Assembly (NCBI RefSeq): GCF_001678945.1
Contig: NZ_CP015124.1
Coordinates: 2,952,001-3,016,000, forward strand
Direction: 5' to 3'
Origin: Phaeobacter gallaeciensis
Lineage (GTDB): Bacteria; Pseudomonadota; Alphaproteobacteria; Rhodobacterales; Rhodobacteraceae
DNA length: 64,000 bases
A model generated the notes under the pieces. The model searched no databases and was not told the origin of the DNA. It saw only the letters and a program-made list of their open reading frames with translations. Shown here piece after piece: positions 48,618 through 60,242 of the stretch; position 1 is the stretch's first letter; the number at the start of each line of letters is the position of its first letter. Position numbers and translations under genes: made by a program.

Positions 48618-49754
48618 ATGAAAGCAATCAAAACACTGGCGCTGGCGACAGCGGTGTCCGCTCTGGCCGTTGCGGCGCAGGCCGAGACCAAGATCGGCAT
48701 GATCACCACCCTGTCCGGCGGCGGCGCCAGCCTTGGCGTGGATACCCGCGACGGGTTCATGCTGGCGATGGAAAACGCCGGGCGCGATGACGTCGAAGTG
48801 GTGATCGAGGACGATCAGCGCAAACCTGCAACCGCAGTCCAGATCGCCGATCAGATGATCCAGTCCGAAAAGGTGGATATCCTGACCGGTATCGTGTGGT
48901 CGAACCTGGCCATGGCGGTGGTGCCCTCGGCGACCGGGCAGGGGCTGTTCTACCTGTCGACCAATGCCGCGCCGGCACAGCTGGCGGGCAAGGGCTGCAA
49001 CCCGAACTATTTCTCGGTCTCCTACCAGAACGACAACCTGCACGAAGCGGCCGGTGCCTACGCCACCAGCGCCGATTTCAAGAAGACCTTCATCATGGCG
49101 CCGAACTATCCGGCCGGGAAGGATTCCCTCAACGGGTTCAAGCGCTTCTACAAGGGTGAACTGGCGGGTGAGATCTACACCAAGCTGGGCCAGACTGATT
49201 ATGCCGCCGAACTGGCGCAGGTCCGTGCCAGCGGCGCCGACTCGGTCTTCTTCTTCCTGCCCGGCGGAATGGGGATCTCCTTCCTCAAGCAATACGCCGC
49301 CAGCGGTATCGATCTGCCCGTAGTGGGCCCGGCCTTCTCTTTTGATCAGGGCATCCTGCAGGCGGTGGGCGATGCGGCGCTGGGGGTAAAGAACACCTCG
49401 CAGTGGAACAAGGATCTGGACAATGCGGCCAACGCCGAATTCGTCTCTGGTTTCCAGGAAAAATACGGCCGCCTGCCGTCGCTTTATGCGGCGCAGGGCT
49501 ATGACACCGCCAACCTGATCCTGAGCGCGCTGGACAAGGCCGACGTGTCGGACAAAGACGCCTTCCGCGCTGCCCTGAAAGAAGCCGATTTCGCATCGGT
49601 GCGGGGTAAGTTCAGCTTTGGTCCGAACCAGCACCCGATCCAGGACATTTACGTCCGCGAGGTCATCAAGGAAGGTGATATCTTCACCAATAAGATCATC
49701 GGCACCAGTCTGACAGATCATTCCGACGCCTACGCGGCCGAGTGCAAGATGTAA
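48618..49754 (+). CDS. HAAT-type ABC transporter, substrate-binding protein
   Basis: The 378-residue periplasmic protein has a Sec signal (MKAIKTLALATAVSALAVAAQA) and a LivK-type fold: IGMITTLSGGGASLGVDTRDGF near the start, QKP-like ADQMIQSEKVDILTG near 80 and YAAQGYDTANLIL near 295. Such proteins bind branched-chain amino acids, amides, urea or aromatic acids. It is the first gene of a complete five-gene transporter behind the lyase/M24/racemase trio, so it probably imports that pathway's substrate. Confidence 0.92.
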   Translation: MKAIKTLALATAVSALAVAAQAETKIGMITTLSGGGASLGVDTRDGFMLAMENAGRDDVEVVIEDDQRKPATAVQIADQMIQSEKVDILTGIVWSNLAMAVVPSATGQGLFYLSTNAAPAQLAGKGCNPNYFSVSYQNDNLHEAAGAYATSADFKKTFIMAPNYPAGKDSLNGFKRFYKGELAGEIYTKLGQTDYAAELAQVRASGADSVFFFLPGGMGISFLKQYAASGIDLPVVGPAFSFDQGILQAVGDAALGVKNTSQWNKDLDNAANAEFVSGFQEKYGRLPSLYAAQGYDTANLILSALDKADVSDKDAFRAALKEADFASVRGKFSFGPNQHPIQDIYVREVIKEGDIFTNKIIGTSLTDHSDAYAAECKM

Positions 49755-49768
49755 TCTGATCCTCCCTG

Positions 49769-49793
49769 CGGGGGCGCCGCATTGGCGCCCCCG
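49769..49793 (+). other. intercistronic hairpin after binding-protein gene
   Basis: CGGGGGCGCC and GGCGCCCCCG form a perfect 10-bp stem around GCATT between the binding-protein and first permease genes. No T-run follows. Its place parallels the phnD-phnE hairpin. Confidence 0.65.
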
Positions 49794-49811
49794 TCAGAAC
49801 GGAAATCTCCC

Positions 49812-50732
49812 ATGTCCATTGTTCTCATTCTTGAGCAGATCCTGAACGGATTGCAGTTCGGGGTCATGCTGTTTCTCATGGCTGCGGGCCTGACGCTGGT
49901 TTTTGGCGTTATGGGCCTGATCAACCTCGCCCATGGTGCGCTTTACATGGTTGGGGCCTTCGCGGCGGCGGCAGTGGCCGGGCTGACCGGTTCCTTCCTG
50001 CTGGCGCTGATTGCCAGTTTGGCTGCGGCGGCTGCGGCCGGGGCTGTGGTCGAGATCGCGGTGATCCGGCGGCTTTATGACCGCGATCACCTTGATCAGG
50101 TCCTGGCGACCTTTGCGCTGATCCTGATTTTCTCCGAAGGCACTCGCTGGATTTTCGGCTCCTTTCCACTGTTTCTGGATGTGCCTGCCGCATTGGCCGG
50201 GCCGCTCAGCTTGCCGGGCGGTATCGAATACCCGGCCTACCGCCTTGCCATTATCGGCATCGGGCTGGTGGTGGCAGCGCTGCTGTTCTGGCTGATCGCC
50301 CGCACCCGTATCGGGATCCAGATCCGGGCCGGTGAAGCCGACCGCGAGATGATCGCAGCGCTGGGGGTGGATATTTCCCGGCTGTATACGCTGGTCTTTG
50401 CCCTTGGCGCCGCGCTGGCGGGGCTTGCCGGTGCCTTGGTCGGAGCCATTCAGTCGGTTCAGGTCGGCATGGGAGAGCCGGTTCTGATCCTGGCCTTTGT
50501 GGTGATTGTCATCGGTGGTATCGGCTCGATCAAGGGCGCGCTGGTCGGCGCGCTGCTGGTGGGGCTAACGGATACGCTGGGCAAGGTCTTCCTGCCGCAA
50601 TTCTTTGGTCTGTTCCTGGAACCGGCAAGTGCTGCCTCGGTCGGGGCCTCGCTGGCGTCGATGTTGATCTACATCCTGATGGCGGCGGTTCTGCTGGTGC
50701 GCCCCTCGGGACTTTATGGGGGGAGCGCATGA
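49812..50732 (+). CDS. HAAT ABC transporter permease (LivH-like)
   Basis: The 306-residue inner-membrane protein has about eight hydrophobic helices. LivH features include LNGLQFGVMLFLMAAGLTLVFG near the start, GLINLAHGALYMVGA near 40 and the coupling region REMIAALGVDISRLYTLVF near 185. ATG 49812 is used, since the upstream in-frame ATG lies in the hairpin. It overlaps the LivM-like gene by ATGA. Confidence 0.9.
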   Translation: MSIVLILEQILNGLQFGVMLFLMAAGLTLVFGVMGLINLAHGALYMVGAFAAAAVAGLTGSFLLALIASLAAAAAAGAVVEIAVIRRLYDRDHLDQVLATFALILIFSEGTRWIFGSFPLFLDVPAALAGPLSLPGGIEYPAYRLAIIGIGLVVAALLFWLIARTRIGIQIRAGEADREMIAALGVDISRLYTLVFALGAALAGLAGALVGAIQSVQVGMGEPVLILAFVVIVIGGIGSIKGALVGALLVGLTDTLGKVFLPQFFGLFLEPASAASVGASLASMLIYILMAAVLLVRPSGLYGGSA

Positions 50733-51718
50733 GCATGACCCGTGAAAACCTGTTCAACTGGGCGCTGGCGCTGGCGCTGCTGGCGGTGCCGCTCTGGGCC
50801 AATGCCATGGACGAGCCCTTTGTCATTACCCTCGCTACCAAGGTCGCGATCCTGGCGCTGGCCGGTGTCGGCCTCAATATCGCGCTGGGGATCGGCGGGC
50901 TGGTGAGCCTTGGCCATGCGGCGTTCTTTGGGATCGGCGGCTATGCCATGGGCATTCTGGCCGCCCATGCCCAGAACTATGAGCCGCTGATGCAGGTGCC
51001 GTTTCTGATCGAAGGCACCAATCAGATGCCGGTGATCTGGCTGGTGGCCACCGTGGCCAGCGCGCTGGTGGCGCTGGTGATCGGGGCGCTGTCGCTGCGC
51101 ACCTCGGGCGTCTATTTCATCATGATCACGCTGGCCTTTGGTCAGATGCTCTACTATTTCGCGATCTCCTGGTCCGCCTATGGCGGCGAGGACGGGTTGT
51201 CGATCTGGGTGCGCAACGAATTTCCCGGCCTCAACACGCTGGACCCGATCCAGTTCTTCATGATCGCCTATGTCATCCTCTGCCTGGTACTGGTCTTCTC
51301 TGCCCGGCTGGGTCGCTCGCCCTTTGGCCTAGCGCTGGCGGCCGCCCGCCAGACCGAAGAGCGGGTGATGACCGTGGGGCTGACGCCCTTTCATCTGCGG
51401 CTTGTGGCCTTTGTCATCTCGGGCGCGATCACCGGTCTTGCCGGCGCGCTTTATGCCGATCTCAACCGTTTTGTCAGCCCGACCATGCTGAGCTGGCACA
51501 CCAGCGGTGAAATCATGGTCTTTGTCATTATCGGCGGGGTGGGGCGGCTGTTCGGCCCTGTTGTAGGCGCTGCCGTCTATATCCTGCTGGAGCATCTCCT
51601 GGGCGGGATCAGTGAATACTGGCAGATCTTCCTCGGGCTATTGCTGCTCCTGATGGTGCTGTTTGCCCGCGGCGGCCTGATCGGCGCCCTGACAGGACGT
51701 GAGGTGGCCCATGACTGA
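50729..51718 (+). CDS. HAAT ABC transporter permease (LivM-like)
   Basis: The 329-residue permease carries the LivM signature GLNIALGIGGLVSLGHAAFFGIGGYA (around residues 48-73) and QTEERVMTVGLTPFHLRLVAFVISG near 210, the segment that contacts the ATPases. It pairs with the preceding LivH-like permease. It overlaps both neighbours by a few bases. Confidence 0.9.
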   Translation: MSMTRENLFNWALALALLAVPLWANAMDEPFVITLATKVAILALAGVGLNIALGIGGLVSLGHAAFFGIGGYAMGILAAHAQNYEPLMQVPFLIEGTNQMPVIWLVATVASALVALVIGALSLRTSGVYFIMITLAFGQMLYYFAISWSAYGGEDGLSIWVRNEFPGLNTLDPIQFFMIAYVILCLVLVFSARLGRSPFGLALAAARQTEERVMTVGLTPFHLRLVAFVISGAITGLAGALYADLNRFVSPTMLSWHTSGEIMVFVIIGGVGRLFGPVVGAAVYILLEHLLGGISEYWQIFLGLLLLLMVLFARGGLIGALTGREVAHD

Positions 51719-52478
51719 TCCGCATACAAACCCGGTGCTGAAGGTCGAAGGCATCAGCAAAAGCTTTGGCGCGCTCAAGGCCAGCGACAATGTCAGCATC
51801 GACCTGCGCCCCGGTGAAATCCACGCCCTGATCGGCCCCAATGGCGCGGGCAAATCCACCCTGATCAAGCAGATCTCGGGTAGCTTGCGTCCCGACACCG
51901 GCCGGATCGAGGTTCTGGGCCGCGATGTCACCGACCTTGATACCGTGGCGCGGGCGCGGCTGGGGCTGGGGCGGACGTTCCAGATCTCCTCGCTCGCGAT
52001 GGAGTTCACCGTGCTGCAGAACGTGGTGCTGGGCGCGCTTGGTGCGCAGGGCCGGGTGTTTTCCTTCTTCCGCAACGTGATGAAGGACAAGACCCTGCTG
52101 GAGCCTGCCCGCCGCGCCTTGGAACGCGTCGGTCTGCAGGATGAGGCGCAGCGGCGCACCGCCGATCTGTCGCATGGCCAGCGCCGTCAGCTGGAGGTCG
52201 CGGTGGCACTCACGCTCAATCCCAAACTGTTCCTGATGGATGAACCCATGGCCGGTCTTGGTGCCAGCGGCTCCAAGGTTCTGACCGGGTTTCTGGACGA
52301 GCTGCGTCACGAGGCGCCGATCCTGCTGGTGGAACACGATATGGACGCGGTCTTTGCCCTTGCTGACCGGATCAGCGTGCTGGTCTATGGCGCGGTGATC
52401 GCCACCGGCACCGCCGATGAAATCCGCGCAAATCCCGAGGTGCGACGTGCTTACCTCGGAGAGGAGGACGCCGCATGA
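51711..52478 (+). CDS. HAAT ABC transporter ATP-binding protein (LivG-like)
   Basis: The 255-residue ATPase has Walker A GPNGAGKST near 45, the LivG-type Q-loop GRTFQISSL near 92, signature LSHGQRRQLEVAVAL near 150 and Walker B LFLMDEPMAGL near 173. The LSHGQ signature is usual for this branch. ATG 51711 overlaps the permease stop. It acts with the following LivF-like subunit. Confidence 0.9.
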   Translation: MTDPHTNPVLKVEGISKSFGALKASDNVSIDLRPGEIHALIGPNGAGKSTLIKQISGSLRPDTGRIEVLGRDVTDLDTVARARLGLGRTFQISSLAMEFTVLQNVVLGALGAQGRVFSFFRNVMKDKTLLEPARRALERVGLQDEAQRRTADLSHGQRRQLEVAVALTLNPKLFLMDEPMAGLGASGSKVLTGFLDELRHEAPILLVEHDMDAVFALADRISVLVYGAVIATGTADEIRANPEVRRAYLGEEDAA

Positions 52479-53164
52479 GCCTGTTGTCCCTGAACAAAGT
52501 CGAGGCCTCCTACGGCCCCTCGCAGGCGCTGTTCGGCGTCTCGCTGGATCTGGCCGAAGGCGAGGTCGTCGCCCTGATGGGCCGCAACGGCATGGGCAAG
52601 ACCACCACCATCAAATCGATCTGCGGCATGGTGCATCCCTCTGCGGGCGATGTGCGGTTCGACGGGCACGATCTGCGGCAATTGCCCTCGCACAAGATCG
52701 CGCGGCTGGGGATTGGTCTGGTGCCCGAGGGGCGCCGCTGTTTCGGCCCGCTGACGGTGGAGGAAAATCTGACCGCCGCCGCCCGCCCGGGCCCCTGGGA
52801 TTTTGAGCGCGTCGCCGGGCTGTTTCCACGGCTCAAGGAACGGCGCGATCAGACCGCAAGTTCCCTGTCGGGCGGCGAGCAGCAGATGCTGGCCATTGGC
52901 CGCGCCCTGATGACCAACCCGCGCCTGCTGATCCTGGATGAGGCAACCGAGGGGCTGGCCCCCGTGGTGCGACAGGAAATCTGGGCGGCGATTGCCCAGC
53001 TAAAGCGTGAGGCGGGCTTGTCGATCCTGGTGGTGGACAAGACGCTGAAGGAACTCGCCCAGATCGCCGATCACGCGGTGATCCTGAACCGCGGCCAAAG
53101 CGTCTGGACCGGACGCATGGAGGACCTCACCCCGGATCTGACGGACCAGTATCTGGGGGTCTAG
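52475..53164 (+). CDS. HAAT ABC transporter ATP-binding protein (LivF-like)
   Basis: The 229-residue ATPase has Walker A GRNGMGKTT near 36, Q-loop-region GLVPEGRRCF near 87, signature LSGGEQQMLAIGRALM near 130 and Walker B LLILDEATEGLAP near 150. It is the last gene of the HAAT operon; the DNA after it becomes markedly AT-richer. Confidence 0.92.
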   Translation: MSLLSLNKVEASYGPSQALFGVSLDLAEGEVVALMGRNGMGKTTTIKSICGMVHPSAGDVRFDGHDLRQLPSHKIARLGIGLVPEGRRCFGPLTVEENLTAAARPGPWDFERVAGLFPRLKERRDQTASSLSGGEQQMLAIGRALMTNPRLLILDEATEGLAPVVRQEIWAAIAQLKREAGLSILVVDKTLKELAQIADHAVILNRGQSVWTGRMEDLTPDLTDQYLGV

Positions 53165-53669: not shown

Positions 53670-54257
53670 ATGAGAAAACAATTCAATTCTAGGCTCGTCG
53701 CCATCACAATCCTCGTGTCTTCTTTTCCTTGTATAGCTTACTCGATGGACTCGTTTGAACGAAAATTGCATGCTTCAATGAGGCTTTTGGAAAATTCACA
53801 GGTTCAATTTGAGGAATGCACCATTGAGGTTGTGAATCAGAGTCCGTATCCGTGTACTCATGTCGAACAGTACAAGAGTCACGAGTTAAGGATTGATTTG
53901 AGGGAAGTAGAGCATATCGTCCTGCGCGGCTCTTCAGATCGACAATTTTTAGAATTTAAATACTCTCAAAATATTCGTGAAGTTCTAGAGCGCGCGTACA
54001 ATAGCCTGATGGATCGTACTTTCGATCATATTCTTGGAGATTTTAATGGAACTCCTCTGAGAAGATACGCAACTGCGGAGAAGATCTTGAGTGAAAATGG
54101 AGTTAGGTCTGGCAGTAGGTCGGTTCAATGTAATGGACTTAAAACCCGTTCGATCTCATCTTCTCTGAACGAATATGTGGTATTTGGAGGTGATTCTCGG
54201 TATGAAGTCCTGCAACAGTTGCGCGCAGAATTGGATATGTGTCGAGTAGGAATGTAG
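53670..54257 (+). CDS. hypothetical secreted protein in low-GC islet
   Basis: The 195-residue protein has a plausible signal peptide (LVAITILVSSFPCIAYS) and a mostly polar mature part with several cysteines (ECTIEV, YPCTHV, VQCNGL, DMCRVGM), suggesting periplasmic disulfides. Codon use is AT-rich and unlike the rest of the window, a sign of recent acquisition. No family is recognised. It is isolated between the HAAT operon and the convergent deaminase gene. Confidence 0.6.
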   Translation: MRKQFNSRLVAITILVSSFPCIAYSMDSFERKLHASMRLLENSQVQFEECTIEVVNQSPYPCTHVEQYKSHELRIDLREVEHIVLRGSSDRQFLEFKYSQNIREVLERAYNSLMDRTFDHILGDFNGTPLRRYATAEKILSENGVRSGSRSVQCNGLKTRSISSSLNEYVVFGGDSRYEVLQQLRAELDMCRVGM

Positions 54258-54393: not shown

Positions 54394-55674
54394 CTACCCC
54401 GCTTCATGCCGTCGCCGTACAGTTTCGGGCCGTCCCGGCAGCATAAGGCGCGCGTCCCCACGGGCGCTGCGGGCAATCACTTTGCCCTTGGCGACCACTG
54501 CCAGGCGGGCGGGGCGCAGGCGGACGGCTTCGGTGGGGGTGCTGGCATCCAGAACCACGAGGGAGGCATCGCTGCCAACTTTCAGGCCATAGTCCTGTAG
54601 CCCGATGATCTGAGCGTTGACCTCGGTCACCATGGTGAAACAGCGGCCCATTTCGTCCGGGTGGCTCATCTGCGCCACGTGCAGACCCATGAAGGCGACG
54701 TCCAGCATGTCTCCGGTGCCCAATGAATACCAGGGATCCAGCACGCAGTCCTGCCCCCAGCCCACGGGGATGCCCATCGCCTGCATTTCCTTCACCCGGG
54801 TGAGACCCCGGCGTTTGGGGAAGGTATCGTGCCGTCCCTGCAGCATGATGTTAATCAGCGGGTTGGGGATGGCGGAAATCCCGGCCTCGGCGATCAGCGG
54901 CAGCAGTTTGCTGACGTAGTAATTGTCCATCGAATGCATCGAGGTCAGGTGACTGCCCGCAACGCGGCCCTCTAGGCCCAGCCGCTGGGTCTCATAGGCC
55001 AGCGCCTCGATATGGCGGGACAGGGGATCGTCGGTCTCATCGCAGTGGATGTCGACCATCAGGCCACGTTCGGCGGCGATCTCGCACAGATCGCGCATCG
55101 ACTGCGCGCCATCTGCCATGGTGCGCTCAAAGTGAGGGATGCCGCCCACCACATCAACGCCCATATCCAGCGCGCGGATCACGTTCTCGCGCCCCGTTTT
55201 GGTGCGGTAAAGACCATCCTGTGGAAAGGCGACCAGTTGCAGGTCGATGTAGTCTTTGACCTTCTCCTTCACCTCCAGCATGGCGGTAACGGTGTTGAGG
55301 TGATCGGGTGTGGTGTCCACATGGGAGCGGATCGCCAGCGTTCCCATTGAGGCGGCCCAGTCGCAATAGGTGAGGGCGCGCTCGACCATCTCATCCACCG
55401 TGGCGATGTCGCGCAGCTCCCCCCAAAGGGAGATCCCTTCCAGCAGCGTGCCCGAGGCGTTGAGCCGGGGTTTGCCATACGACAGCGTCGCATCCATGTG
55501 GAAATGCGGATCGACGAAAGGCGGCGCCACCAGATCGCCGCTTGCGTCGATGACCTCAGCCGCTTCGGCATCGAGACGGGCTTCGATGGCGGTGATCTTG
55601 CCGCCTGTAATGCCGATATCGGCGGTTGTTCCATCGGGCAGGGTGCCGCCCTTGACGATCAGGTCGAACATCAT
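54394..55674 (-). CDS. cytosine deaminase family amidohydrolase, predicted 5-methylcytosine deaminase
   Basis: The 426-residue protein aligns by eye with E. coli CodA. Metal ligands are His56 and His58 (HFHMD), His in DIHCDE and Asp308; the catalytic Glu of HCDE, the later His of GSHLTSMHS and the Gln of AFPQDG are also present (numbered from the second Met). CodA's GHDDVFDPW reads GQDCVLDPW, so Asp314 of CodA is replaced by Cys309 and Phe316 by Leu. Loss of that Asp marks enzymes shown to deaminate 5-methylcytosine. ATGs at 55674 and 55671 are both possible starts. It overlaps the last permease gene of the BmpA-type transporter. Confidence 0.87.
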   Translation of the reverse strand: MMFDLIVKGGTLPDGTTADIGITGGKITAIEARLDAEAAEVIDASGDLVAPPFVDPHFHMDATLSYGKPRLNASGTLLEGISLWGELRDIATVDEMVERALTYCDWAASMGTLAIRSHVDTTPDHLNTVTAMLEVKEKVKDYIDLQLVAFPQDGLYRTKTGRENVIRALDMGVDVVGGIPHFERTMADGAQSMRDLCEIAAERGLMVDIHCDETDDPLSRHIEALAYETQRLGLEGRVAGSHLTSMHSMDNYYVSKLLPLIAEAGISAIPNPLINIMLQGRHDTFPKRRGLTRVKEMQAMGIPVGWGQDCVLDPWYSLGTGDMLDVAFMGLHVAQMSHPDEMGRCFTMVTEVNAQIIGLQDYGLKVGSDASLVVLDASTPTEAVRLRPARLAVVAKGKVIARSARGDARLMLPGRPETVRRRHEAG

Positions 55675-56615
55675 CTTTCCCCCTTGTTAAAGGGCACCAT
55701 CAGCGCCGCCGGGATCTCGGCGCGGCGGGACATCACCACCAGCGCCAGAATGGACAGGATATAGGGCATCATCAGGAAGACCTGATAGGGCACCACCGCG
55801 CCGATGCCGGTTTGTTGCAGTCGGATCTGCAGGGCGTCAAAGGCGGCAAACAGCACCGCGCCCAGCACCGCCTTGCCCGGTTTCCAGGCGCCAAAGACGA
55901 CCAGCGCGATACAAATCCAGCCGCGCCCGTTCACCATGTCGAAGAAGAAGCTGTCAAAGGCCGACAGCGTCAGGAAGGCACCGCCGATAGCCATGAAGCC
56001 CGAGCCGACCACCACCGCGCCCATGCGGATCGCGGTGACCGACAGGCCCTGCGCCGCTACGGCTTGCGGGTTTTCCCCGGCCGCCCGCACCGCAAGGCCC
56101 AAGGGCGTCCGGTAAAGGACCAGCGCCGTCAGCCCCGCCAGCACAAAGGCGGCATAGGTCAGCGGCGTTTGCGAGAACAGCGCAGGGCCTACGAGGGGCA
56201 GATCTGACAGAAGCGGGATCTCATAGGGCTGAAAGGCGGTGATTTTCGGCGGCGAAGACACCTCGGGCAGGATCACCCGGTAGGTATAGAAGGTCAGCGA
56301 GGTCGCCAACAGCGTTAGCCCGACCCCGACCACGTGTTGCGACAGGCCAAAGGGCACTGAGAATACCGAATGCACCAGCCCCAGCATCATGCCGGTCAGC
56401 ATGGCCACCGCGACCCCGCCCCAAAGCGGCAGGCCGCCCCAGACCGCGATCCAGCCTGCAAATGCGCCCGCGACCATGATGCCTTCGATGCCGAGGTTCA
56501 GAACGCCCGCGCGTTCGCAGATCAGCTCTCCGATGGTGGCAAAGATCAGCGGCGATGCGATGCGGATGGCTGCAGCCCAGAAACTGGCCGACAGCAGGAT
56601 GTCGATGAGATCCAT
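55671..56615 (-). CDS. nucleoside/nucleobase-type ABC transporter permease
   Basis: The 314-residue permease has about eight to nine helices and the YufQ/NupQ-like pattern FATIGELICERAGVLNLGIEG near residues 25-45 and AAGENPQAVAAQGLSV near 180 (coupling region). It pairs with the next permease. It overlaps the deaminase by about four bases, linking transport and deamination. Confidence 0.88.
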   Translation of the reverse strand: MDLIDILLSASFWAAAIRIASPLIFATIGELICERAGVLNLGIEGIMVAGAFAGWIAVWGGLPLWGGVAVAMLTGMMLGLVHSVFSVPFGLSQHVVGVGLTLLATSLTFYTYRVILPEVSSPPKITAFQPYEIPLLSDLPLVGPALFSQTPLTYAAFVLAGLTALVLYRTPLGLAVRAAGENPQAVAAQGLSVTAIRMGAVVVGSGFMAIGGAFLTLSAFDSFFFDMVNGRGWICIALVVFGAWKPGKAVLGAVLFAAFDALQIRLQQTGIGAVVPYQVFLMMPYILSILALVVMSRRAEIPAALMVPFNKGER

Positions 56616-56616
56616 G

Positions 56617-57666
56617 TCAGTCCCTCCGCAGGCGGAATTTAGTGAGAAGGATCGCTAGCACCATGAACAACAGGGCCGAGGCGAGCATGATATCGGCAAG
56701 GTAACTTGGTACGCCTGCGGCGCGGCTCATGCTGTCGGCGCCGACGAAAATGGCGGCCACGAACAGCGCCGCGACAACCACGCCCAGCGGGTGCAGCAGC
56801 GCCAGCATGGCGACCACGATGCCGGTGTAGCCAAAGCCGGGGCTGAGATCGAGCGTCAGCGATCCCTTGAGGCCGGAGACCTCGGAAAAGCCCGCAAGAC
56901 CGGCAAGGCCACCGGACAGCAGCGCGGTTTTGAGGATCACCTTGGTGACCGGGATGCCGGCGAAACCGGCGGCCTCGGCGTTCTGGCCGACGGCGCGCAT
57001 TTCATAGCCCAGCGTGGTGCGGGTGTTGATCACCCAGACGGCAAGTGCCGCGATCAGCGCCAGCGCAAAGCCCCAGTGCAGGCGCAGCCCTTCGACGATG
57101 CGGGGCAGGCGGGCCTCGGGCAATAGCCGCGCGGATTTGGGCCAGCCCATGCCCATGGGATCCTTCAGCGGTCCTTCGAGCAGGTAGCTGACAAACAGCA
57201 GGAAAATGAAGTTGAGGAGCAGCGTCGTCACCACTTCATCGACGCCCAGCCGGGTTTTCAGGAGGGCAGGACCCAAGAGGAGCAGCGCCCCGGCCAGCAT
57301 CGCAGCGATGGCGCAAAGCGCCAGCATCAGCGGCGCAGGCAGCGACAGGGCACCGGTGCCCAGAACCACGGTGATCACCGCCCCGGCATAGAGTTGCGCC
57401 TCGGCGCCGATGTTCCACAGCTTGGCCCGGAACGCCACCGCGATGGCCAGCCCGGTAAAGATCAGCGGTGTTGCGCTGTTCAGCGTCTCCAGGATGGCGA
57501 ATTTCGATCCAAACGCGCCTTCTAGGATCAGGCCAAAGACGGCAAAGGGGTTGCCGCCCGCGATCATCGCCAGCAGGGCCGCCACCACAAAGGTCGCGGC
57601 GATGGCCAGCGCTGGCGGCAGCACACGCCGCCCAAGGGAGGGCGCTGCAATCGGTTCAAGCCGCAT
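56617..57666 (-). CDS. nucleoside/nucleobase-type ABC transporter permease
   Basis: The 349-residue YufP/NupP-like permease has GNPFAVFGLILEGAFGSK near residue 38, LIFTGLAIAVAFRAKLWNIGAEAQ near 70-93 and the coupling region MRAVGQNAEAAGFAGIPV near 223. About nine helices are visible. It overlaps the ATPase gene by 11 bases and precedes the second permease by one base. Confidence 0.88.
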   Translation of the reverse strand: MRLEPIAAPSLGRRVLPPALAIAATFVVAALLAMIAGGNPFAVFGLILEGAFGSKFAILETLNSATPLIFTGLAIAVAFRAKLWNIGAEAQLYAGAVITVVLGTGALSLPAPLMLALCAIAAMLAGALLLLGPALLKTRLGVDEVVTTLLLNFIFLLFVSYLLEGPLKDPMGMGWPKSARLLPEARLPRIVEGLRLHWGFALALIAALAVWVINTRTTLGYEMRAVGQNAEAAGFAGIPVTKVILKTALLSGGLAGLAGFSEVSGLKGSLTLDLSPGFGYTGIVVAMLALLHPLGVVVAALFVAAIFVGADSMSRAAGVPSYLADIMLASALLFMVLAILLTKFRLRRD

Positions 57667-59200
57667 CGGTCATGTCCTTGTCAAAGCCTTCGCCCGCCAT
57701 CCAGCGGCCCAGATCCTCGGGGCGCATGGTGCCACGGGCAAATTCCGGGCTGAGCCGCCCTTCGGAAATCACGTGGATCACATCCGACAGGCGCATGATT
57801 TCATCGAGGTCCTCTGAGATCAGCAGAACGGCGGCGCCCCGATCGCGGGCCTTGGCCAGTTGTTCATGCACGTAGTTCACCGCGCCGATGTCCAATCCTC
57901 GTACCGGCTGGTTGGCGAGGATGATATCCGGTGCGCCTTCGAGCACCCGGCCGAGGATCAGTTTCTGCATATTGCCGCCCGACAGCAGGCGGATGCGGAT
58001 ATCGGGCCCCGGGCAGCGGATGTCGTAGCCCTTGATCAGGCCTTCGGCAAAGGCGCGGGCCTTTTTCCAGTTCATCCAGCCGCGCTGGCTGAACCGGGTG
58101 GCGTAGGTTTCGAGGATCGCGTTCTCGGTCAGGTCGAAATCGGCGATGGTGCCGGTCTTGTGCCGGTCCTCGGGAATGCGGGCGACGCCATTTGCGATGG
58201 CGCTGCGCGGCGACCAGCCTTTAGGGGCTTGTCCATGCAGCTCCATGCTACCGCTGGACGGGGCGATGAGGCCCGAGATCAGATCGGACAGCGCCGCCTG
58301 CCCGTTGCCGGACACCCCGGCAAGCCCGGTGATCTGGCCCGCACGCAGCTCCAGCGCCACTCGTGCCAGTCCCGGCGCCGATCCGGCGCCTGGCGTGGTG
58401 ACTCCGCGCAATGACAGCAGCGGTGCGCCGGGGGTAGCGGGTGCGATGCTTGGCGCGCTGACCTCAGCGCCGACCATCAGCGCGGCGAGTTCCTCGCCAT
58501 TGGTGTCTGCGGTGGCGCGCTCGGCCACAAGGCGGCCATGGCGCAGCACCAGCACGCGGTCGGAAATCGCCATGACTTCGTGCAATTTATGGGAAATGAA
58601 GATCACAGACAGCCCCGAGGCAATCGCCTCGCGCAGAGTGGCGAACAGCGCGTCGGCCTCTTGCGGGGTCAGAACCGCGGTGGGCTCGTCCAGGATCAAG
58701 ATCTTTGCATCGCGGTAAAGCGCCTTCAGGATCTCGACCCGCTGGCGTTCGCCCACGGTCAGACGGCCGACCTTGGCGTCGGGATCGACCTTCAGGTGAA
58801 AGCGTTCCGACAGGTCGCGGATGCGCGCCTTGGCGGCGGCGGGCCTCAGGCTGGCAGCGCTAAGGGCATCAACGCCCAGCACGATGTTTTCCCAAACCGT
58901 CAGGTTCCCCGCGAGGGTGAAATGCTGATGCACCATGCCGACACCAGCATCCAGCGCCGCGCGCGGATTGCCCGCGGGCAGGGGCTGGCCGAACAGCTCG
59001 ACTGATCCTTCATCGGCGGTGTACTGGCCGAACAGGATGTTCATCAGCGTGGTCTTGCCCGCGCCGTTTTCCCCCAAAAGCGCGATCACCTCACCCCGGT
59101 GCAGGGAAAAGCTGACGTCTTCGTTGGCGGTGACGGGACCGAACCGTTTCGTAATGTTCTGAAGGCGCAGGACAACCTGCGCCTTGTCTGTTTCTGTCAT
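57656..59200 (-). CDS. ABC transporter, duplicated ATP-binding protein (YufO/NupO-like)
   Basis: The 514-residue protein contains two ABC domains, as in nucleoside and simple-sugar importers. The first has Walker A GENGAGKTT, signature LTVGERQRVEIL and Walker B ILILDEPTAVL. The second is degenerate, with GVSGNGQAALS in the Walker A position and LSGGNMQKLILGRV as signature. ATG 59200 follows GGCCTTTCGGCT and gives the conserved TETDKAQVVLRLQNITKRFG start. It lies 16 bases after the binding-protein gene. Confidence 0.9.
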   Translation of the reverse strand: MTETDKAQVVLRLQNITKRFGPVTANEDVSFSLHRGEVIALLGENGAGKTTLMNILFGQYTADEGSVELFGQPLPAGNPRAALDAGVGMVHQHFTLAGNLTVWENIVLGVDALSAASLRPAAAKARIRDLSERFHLKVDPDAKVGRLTVGERQRVEILKALYRDAKILILDEPTAVLTPQEADALFATLREAIASGLSVIFISHKLHEVMAISDRVLVLRHGRLVAERATADTNGEELAALMVGAEVSAPSIAPATPGAPLLSLRGVTTPGAGSAPGLARVALELRAGQITGLAGVSGNGQAALSDLISGLIAPSSGSMELHGQAPKGWSPRSAIANGVARIPEDRHKTGTIADFDLTENAILETYATRFSQRGWMNWKKARAFAEGLIKGYDIRCPGPDIRIRLLSGGNMQKLILGRVLEGAPDIILANQPVRGLDIGAVNYVHEQLAKARDRGAAVLLISEDLDEIMRLSDVIHVISEGRLSPEFARGTMRPEDLGRWMAGEGFDKDMTDAA

Positions 59201-59216: not shown

Positions 59217-60242
59217 TCAGGAGGATTTGGGTTCTTCGTCGTTGATCGCAACGGTGAAGGAACCGTCCTTGATCGCGGCGGTGCGGGAGGCAACCAGATC
59301 CAGCGCCTCTTGCGGGATCTTGCCTTCGAAGGTGCCATAGGGCGCCAGCGAACAGCCGCCTTCCTTCATGAAGGAATACATGCCGTAGTCAGCGGCGGTA
59401 AAGCTGCCGCCCTTGACCGCTGCGATGGCCGCATCCAGCGTCGGTTCGAAATGCCAGATCGCCGAGGCCACCACGGTTTCGGGGTAATCCGACTGGGTGT
59501 CGATGACGTTGCCGATGGCCAGAAGGCCCTTTTCCTTGGCTGCGTCTGACACGCCAAAGCGTTCGGCGTAAAGGATGTCGGCGCCGTTCTCGACCATGGC
59601 AAAGGCGGTTTCCTTGGCCTTCGGCGGATCGAACCAGGAACCGATGAAGGAGACCTGGAACTTCATCTCGGGGTTCATCTCCCGCGCACCGGCCATGAAG
59701 GCGTGCATCAGGCGGTTTACTTCCGGGATCGGGAAGCCGCCGACCATGCCGATATTGCCGGATTTCGACATTGCACCCGCGATAATGCCTGAAAGATAGG
59801 AGGCATCCTGAATGTAGTTGTCAAAAACGGACAGGTTCGGGATTGCCGGGTCTTCTTTGAAGGAGGAGCCCATCAGGAAGGCCACATCGGGGTACTCGGC
59901 GGCAACTTCGCGCGCTTCGGCTTCGACACCGAAGATTTCACCGATGATCAGTTGGTAGCCTTGTTCGGCATATTCGCGCATCACGCGGGAATAGTCCGAG
60001 TTCGAGGTGTTCTCGGAATAGGTATAGCTGATGTCGCCGCGGTCCTGCGCGGTCAGGGCGGCCACATGGATACGGCTTACCCATTGCTGTTCGACCGGCA
60101 CGGTATATATGCCCGCGACTTTCAGCGGCTCAGAGGCCATCAGGCGGCTAGGCGCAGCAACGGCGCCTGCGGTCAGGGCCGCAGCCGCGCTGGTGGCCAG
60201 GAACTGGCGGCGCGATACGGCGCCCTTGAATTCATTTGTCAT
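59217..60242 (-). CDS. BmpA-family substrate-binding protein (Tat-exported)
   Basis: The 341-residue protein belongs to the BMP/PnrA purine-nucleoside-binding family, which feeds nucleosides or nucleobases to YufOPQ-type importers. It has a twin-arginine signal SRRQFLATSAAAALTAGAVA at 10-29, so it is exported folded, which is unusual for this family. Conserved segments include EQGYQLIIGEIFGVE, GNIGMVGGFPIPEVNRLM near 165 and FTAADYGMYSFMKEGG near 285. ATG 60242 has GGGGGATTGTTCC upstream. It is the first gene of a five-gene operon ending in the deaminase. Confidence 0.9.
   Translation of the reverse strand: MTNEFKGAVSRRQFLATSAAAALTAGAVAAPSRLMASEPLKVAGIYTVPVEQQWVSRIHVAALTAQDRGDISYTYSENTSNSDYSRVMREYAEQGYQLIIGEIFGVEAEAREVAAEYPDVAFLMGSSFKEDPAIPNLSVFDNYIQDASYLSGIIAGAMSKSGNIGMVGGFPIPEVNRLMHAFMAGAREMNPEMKFQVSFIGSWFDPPKAKETAFAMVENGADILYAERFGVSDAAKEKGLLAIGNVIDTQSDYPETVVASAIWHFEPTLDAAIAAVKGGSFTAADYGMYSFMKEGGCSLAPYGTFEGKIPQEALDLVASRTAAIKDGSFTVAINDEEPKSS

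What the first reader, a model, noticed from the sequence alone, without database searches (positions are those of the whole stretch)
54740..54755. CodA-like deaminase with Asp314-to-Cys change: predicted 5-methylcytosine deaminase
Seen: the deaminase keeps the CodA metal and catalytic residues, but GHDDVFDPW is replaced by GQDCVLDPW, so the residue matching CodA Asp314 is Cys (codon at 54745-54747) and Phe316 is Leu. Established: Asp314 has been described as the residue that discriminates against the 5-methyl group, and homologues lacking it, including one from Rhodobacter sphaeroides, deaminate 5-methylcytosine to thymine. Inference: this gene gives the host a route to salvage methylated cytosine.
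Basis: partly seen in the sequence, partly recalled or inferred. Interest (0 to 1): 0.68.

Follow-up and report, generated by a model that had tools for sequence, protein, structure and literature searches.

The report
Known-type 5-methylcytosine deaminase with transporter operon
The gene is a close relative of a Rhodobacter sphaeroides enzyme that, as recalled from the literature, turns 5-methylcytosine into thymine; the amino-acid difference that drew attention is shared by nearly every relative examined, so the finding is correct but not new.

Summary
The 426-aa gene at 54394-55674 (-) is a CodA-type deaminase; codon 54745-54747 is Cys310 (309 if Met2 starts) and aligns without gaps to CodA Asp314. 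The difference is not peculiar to this gene: it fits NCBIfam NF005748 (753 bits, cut-off 438), and of 138 aligned rows 135 have Cys there, 2 Ser and 1 Asp, the Asp row lying below the family cut-off. The family is in 131 of 394 genomes of the host's family. A genome matched to R. sphaeroides through plasmid DNA has one CodA homologue, 78% identical, with the same motif and operon; by exclusion it should be Rsp0341, which I recall as deaminating 5-methylcytosine. The Klebsiella 5-methylcytosine deaminase has Ser here. So 5-methylcytosine activity is likely, by orthology, and not new. Less obvious is the operon: a Bmp/AtzT-like ABC importer precedes the gene, and its binding protein has a conserved pocket unlike AtzT's. 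Whether the cell salvages 5-methylcytosine is untested. New member of a known kind; low interest.

The parts
54394..55674 (-). CodA-type deaminase, 426 aa, NCBIfam NF005748 (PRK07572, 'cytosine deaminase'), Cys-type
   Evidence: 753 bits against a cut-off of 438; PF07969; AlphaFold2 model mean pLDDT 84, Foldseek best 1k6w, 1r9x, 4r7w
54745..54747 (-). Cys310 codon (TGC), position of CodA Asp314
54748..54750 (-). Asp309 codon, position of CodA Asp313 (metal ligand)
   Evidence: Asp in 138 of 138 rows
54739..54741 (-). Leu312 codon, position of CodA Phe316 (Leu 80, Met 48, Arg 8, Lys 1, Asn 1 of 138 rows)
55671..56615 (-). ABC permease (BPD_transp_2); its end overlaps the deaminase start by 4 bases
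56617..57666 (-). ABC permease (BPD_transp_2)
57656..59200 (-). ABC ATPase with two ATP-binding stretches; start placed by me at Met47 of the longest ORF (which reaches 59338), just before the family matches begin
59217..60242 (-). Substrate-binding protein of the Bmp/PnrA family with a twin-arginine-like leader; start placed by me at Met18 of the longest ORF (to 60293)
   Evidence: PF02608 129 bits; best solved relatives AtzT 6pi5 and 3s99

Best explanation
The gene encodes an orthologue of the R. sphaeroides CodA-like deaminase. It is a metal-dependent amidohydrolase that removes the 4-amino group of cytosine and, because Cys stands where E. coli CodA has the Asp that keeps out a 5-methyl group, also that of 5-methylcytosine, giving uracil or thymine plus ammonia. 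It is the last gene of an apparent operon with a Bmp/AtzT-like ABC importer, which most likely brings the base into the cell. Shown here: close homology with the same operon in R. sphaeroides, active-site residues, Cys in nearly all relatives. Inferred from published work on homologues: activity on 5-methylcytosine. Inferred only: the importer's ligand, and use of the products through uracil phosphoribosyltransferase and the reductive pyrimidine pathway.
For: Subfamily fit. Active site kept and Cys at the Asp314 position. Genome G171 is Cereibacter (Rhodobacter) sphaeroides: 100% over 3765 bases to plasmid NZ_CP030273 of strain 2.4.1. It has one CodA homologue at E <= 1e-10, 78% identical, motif GQDCVLDPWYSLG, same five-gene order. 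The solved Klebsiella 5-methylcytosine deaminase 4r7w has Ser here. CodA with Ala here gains 5-methylcytosine activity (PMC6186785 passages). Fold match to 1k6w and 4r7w, TM 0.87. All four transporter genes found in 56 of 81 loci examined. The host has upp and a dihydropyrimidinase/hydantoinase above cut-off, and no match to the CodB-type permease family PF02133.
Against: No assay. Hitchcock 2014 was not held, so its kinetics and the name Rsp0341 are recalled, and that the R. sphaeroides gene is Rsp0341 rests on its being the only CodA homologue. I recall that Rsp0341 was also active on 5-fluorocytosine, so it may not be specialised for the 5-methyl group. AtzT, the nearest solved relative of the binding protein, prefers guanine and binds cytosine at 800 uM. 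One or more transporter genes were not found in 25 of 81 loci. R. sphaeroides, unlike the host, also has a PF02133 permease. The structure model is weak in loops near the active site (pLDDT 44 for 281-290, 62 for 311-320) and supports the fold only.
Confidence: 0.82

Rival explanations
1. Natural substrate is plain cytosine (uracil salvage or nitrogen), with 5-methylcytosine only a side activity allowed by Cys. This is about the role in the cell and does not exclude the in-vitro activity of the best explanation.
For: NCBIfam names the family 'cytosine deaminase'; the CodA catalytic residues are kept; the host has upp to use uracil, and this is its only CodA homologue at E <= 1e-10.
Against: In the rows aligned, all but L036 (below the family cut-off) have Cys or Ser, while the six rows 71-82% identical to CodA keep Asp; this suggests selection at the position.
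Confidence: 0.5
2. The natural substrate is another base or ring compound (5-hydroxymethylcytosine, a purine such as isoguanine, or a creatinine- or triazine-like ring) taken up by the adjacent importer.
For: Nearest solved relatives of the binding protein carry guanine (AtzT) or a modelled adenine (3s99). Enzymes of the CodA cluster convert many compounds (PMC12828455 passages).
Against: Side chains that contact guanine in AtzT differ (Ser97 to Ile, Asn218 to Glu, Asn220 to Phe), and the R. sphaeroides orthologue is recalled to act on 5-methylcytosine.
Confidence: 0.15

Closest known systems
R. sphaeroides CodA-like deaminase (Rsp0341 by inference; tag and activity recalled)
   Same: 78% identity, identical GQDCVLDPWYSLG motif, same binding protein-ATPase-permease-permease-deaminase order
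   Different: No difference in the motif; ordinary divergence elsewhere
Klebsiella 5-methylcytosine deaminase (4r7w, 4r85, 4r88)
   Same: CodA fold, no Asp at the 314 position, Gln directly before the metal Asp where CodA has His
   Different: Ser instead of Cys. Not itself in my tree; L168, which scores best against 4r7w, lies on the CodA side, outside the Cys subfamily
E. coli cytosine deaminase CodA (1k6w)
   Same: Fold, metal and catalytic residues
   Different: Asp at 314 and Phe at 316; 43% identity; lies next to the permease gene codB
AtzC, N-isopropylammelide isopropylaminohydrolase
   Same: Amidohydrolase with a similar fold (TM 0.80-0.81)
   Different: 28-30% identity

Membership tests
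NCBIfam NF005748 / PRK07572 'cytosine deaminase' | Score above curated cut-off | tested here: met
   753.4 bits against 438
5-methylcytosine deaminase (CodA type lacking Asp314) | CodA metal and catalytic residues present | tested here: met
5-methylcytosine deaminase (CodA type lacking Asp314) | Residue other than Asp at the CodA 314 position | tested here: met
   Cys310, ungapped alignment
5-methylcytosine deaminase (CodA type lacking Asp314) | Catalyses 5-methylcytosine to thymine | not testable with these tools
   Needs an assay; supported by homology only
Classical CodA (NF006685 / PRK09230) | Score above curated cut-off | tested here: not met
   405.9 bits against 483
AtzT-type guanine-binding protein (for the operon's binding protein) | Guanine-contacting side chains Tyr45, Ser97, Glu165, Trp194, Asn218, Asn220 | tested here: not met
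   Of these six only Glu165 and Trp194 are kept; read by eye from the alignment, with a numbering offset of 5 that I inferred; counts

The most novel reading that the evidence does not exclude
The five-gene operon is a dedicated uptake-and-deamination system for 5-methylcytosine (or other free C5-modified cytosines), with a Bmp-family binding protein whose pocket, identical at six of eight examined positions in all 56 operon copies compared and unlike that of AtzT, defines a new ligand class for that family.
Probability: 0.25. Interest if true: 0.5.

Novelty: new member of a known kind. Interest (0 to 1): 0.2.

Why it matters
The enzyme activity is already described for homologues, so the finding mainly extends an annotation: NF005748 members now called 'cytosine deaminase' may well also act on 5-methylcytosine (inference). 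The recurrent operon gives a testable link between a free base and an ABC importer in Alphaproteobacteria.

Tried and rejected
Rejected: that the Asp-to-Cys difference is unique to this gene. In the tree the Cys rows sit with two Ser rows (L025, L033) on one side of a branch with 100/99 support; Ser is also the state of a separate group on the CodA side. That Ser arose more than once is one tree's reading, with long branches flagged, and I hold it loosely. Rejected: that the binding protein can be called a guanine binder from AtzT (pocket differs). Rejected, not firmly: that the liv-type ABC operon at 48618-53164 belongs to this system. It lies on the other strand, converging on the deaminase gene, and its binding protein was found in 0 of 81 related loci; but L037, the closest named relative, has a LivF match of 95% identity downstream, and the other liv genes were not tallied. 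Led nowhere: SPO2802-2805 of Ruegeria pomeroyi, a nucleoside ABC transporter enriched in co-culture with Micromonas; I could not show that it is this operon. Ten paper searches were made; their lists were capped and none named the Cys. No listed title or abstract start was about a Cys-type enzyme, which is weak evidence of absence. Papers: PMC6186785, PMC13054789, PMC12828455, PMC13325309, PMC9870897, PMC10130141, PMC10041152 and PMC6834077 were seen as passages found by term. Hitchcock 2014 was not seen; its content is recalled.

Full report
What is there. The minus strand of the window from 55674 to 54394 encodes a 426-residue protein. It scores 753 bits with NCBIfam NF005748 (PRK07572, cytosine deaminase; cut-off 438) and falls below the cut-off of the classical CodA model NF006685 (405.9 against 483). 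Pfam gives Amidohydro_3 and, weaker, Amidohydro_1. Its relatives of known structure are E. coli CodA, the Klebsiella enzyme 4r7w and, further off, AtzC. An AlphaFold2 model on an 11-sequence alignment has mean pLDDT 84 (the five models range from 84 to 56), with weak loops near the active site (281-290 at 44, 311-320 at 62). It matches 1k6w and 4r7w at TM 0.87; among the matches are solved CodA mutants D314G, D314S and D314A, so the position has been studied before. The model supports the fold, not the pocket.

The residue. Codon 54745-54747 is TGC on the minus strand, Cys310. It aligns without gaps to CodA Asp314, and Leu312 to Phe316; the window protein has the CodA residue at the metal and catalytic positions examined.

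It is a subfamily trait. They were not de-duplicated; L032 is the window's own gene, L029 equals L009 and L031 equals L010. At the 314 position 135 have Cys, 2 Ser (L025, L033) and 1 Asp (L036, which is below the family cut-off). In a phylum search with CodA, 43 of 249 genomes matched and 30 loci were fetched. Of these, 7 have Asp (six with 71-82% identity to CodA, and L172), 12 Ser (47-60%) and 11 Cys, all of the last closer to the window protein than to CodA; L177 and L179 are genes already met as L027 and L021. A 56-row tree sets 33 Cys and 2 Ser rows apart from the CodA side with 100/99 support; the CodA side holds an Asp group and a Ser group. L036, L171, L172 and L011 have long branches and their places are unsure. 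The family is common: above cut-off in 131 of 394 genomes of the host's family and in 15 of 115 of its class. Among 14 well-known control genomes, 3 match at E <= 1e-80 (E. coli, C. glutamicum, S. acidocaldarius), one of them above cut-off, and none at 1e-150. A tblastn search found it or relatives in 510 of 72,556 plasmid records.

Comparison with characterised enzymes. PMC6186785 (passages) states that the Klebsiella 5-methylcytosine deaminase has Ser where CodA has this Asp (315 in its numbering), and that Ala in its place gives CodA activity on 5-methylcytosine. The alignment of 4r7w printed (query L168) shows AQDSIQDPWY, Ser included. I recall from the abstract of Hitchcock et al. 2014, which was not held, that enzymes from Klebsiella, R. 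sphaeroides (Rsp0341) and Corynebacterium glutamicum deaminate 5-methylcytosine. To test the R. sphaeroides case, DNA of the named plasmid NZ_CP030273 of strain 2.4.1 was searched in 394 genomes of the family; one, G171, matched at 100% over all 3765 bases, the next best at 74-78% over parts. G171 has a single CodA homologue at E <= 1e-10. That protein is 78% identical to the window's and carries GQDCVLDPWYSLG. By exclusion it should be Rsp0341.

Surroundings. Upstream on the same strand lie two ABC permeases, an ATPase and a Bmp-family binding protein. The deaminase start overlaps the permease end by four bases (55671-55674). In 81 related loci a permease of this type lies directly upstream in 58, and all four transporter genes are found in 56, the R. 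sphaeroides one included. Twenty-three lack the adjacent permease, among them 16 of the 17 loci titled Mesorhizobium; some are short (L063 has 25 bases upstream), and 70 of 81 pass the script's test for more than 5.5 kb on that side. The closest solved relatives of the binding protein are AtzT (6pi5) and 3s99. AtzT binds guanine at 0.11 uM, adenine at 2.5 uM and cytosine at 800 uM, and 3s99 has a modelled adenine (PMC6834077 passages). At the AtzT contact positions the window protein keeps Glu165, Trp194 and Phe98, but has Val for Tyr45 (with a Trp just before it), Ile for Ser97, Glu for Asn218 and Phe for Asn220 (read by eye, numbering offset inferred). In 56 binding proteins (the window's and 55 from the 81 loci) six of the eight positions examined never vary, the Tyr45 position is Val in 55 and Ile in 1, and the Ser97 position is Val 27, Ile 26, Ala 3. 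Four more distant Bmp proteins, two in the window's genome and two in G171, share the Phe and the Trp194 position, and two of them the Glu165 position, but differ at the Ser97, Asn218 and Asn220 positions; two are not aligned at the Tyr45 position. The importer thus probably carries a flat ring compound other than AtzT's ligand; that it is cytosine or 5-methylcytosine is inference from the operon. Bmp-family proteins elsewhere bind nucleosides (PMC13325309 passages), and a Bmp-type system of R. pomeroyi takes up thymidine (nupABC, PMC10130141 passages; that it is Bmp-type is my recollection), so a nucleoside ligand is not excluded.

Host pathway. The window's genome has no match to the CodB-type family PF02133, while G171 has one. 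Both have uracil phosphoribosyltransferase above cut-off, a dihydropyrimidinase/hydantoinase above cut-off and one match to the C5-methylase family PF00145. These fit use of uracil and thymine but do not prove it.

Judgement. Ordinary, correctly spotted. I put 0.82 on activity towards 5-methylcytosine along with cytosine, and about even odds that cytosine is the main natural substrate. The dedicated 5-methylcytosine import-and-deamination reading (0.25) is the part worth an experiment.

Noticed in passing
53670-54257 (+): 195-aa ORF with a signal-peptide-like start and third-position GC of 0.40, where the ten neighbouring ABC and deaminase genes have 0.74-0.84; no Pfam or NCBIfam match at E <= 0.001. 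Looks like a foreign or orphan gene between two ABC operons.
   Followed up: no
48618-53164 (+): Complete liv-type ABC importer (binding protein, two permeases, two ATPases) converging on the deaminase operon; its binding protein was found in 0 of 81 related loci, though L037 has a LivF match of 95% nearby.
   Followed up: partly
59217-60242 (-): Bmp-family binding protein with pocket positions Trp, Val, Ile/Val, Phe, Glu, Trp, Glu, Phe nearly constant in 56 operon copies and partly different from AtzT and from four more distant Bmp proteins.
   Followed up: yes
L025, L033: Two NF005748 members with Ser instead of Cys at the 314 position, the residue of the Klebsiella enzyme.
   Followed up: partly
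window 54394-55674 against plasmid records: Relatives occur in 510 of 72,556 plasmid records, most often in Rhizobium and Sinorhizobium, so the gene often travels on large replicons.
   Followed up: no
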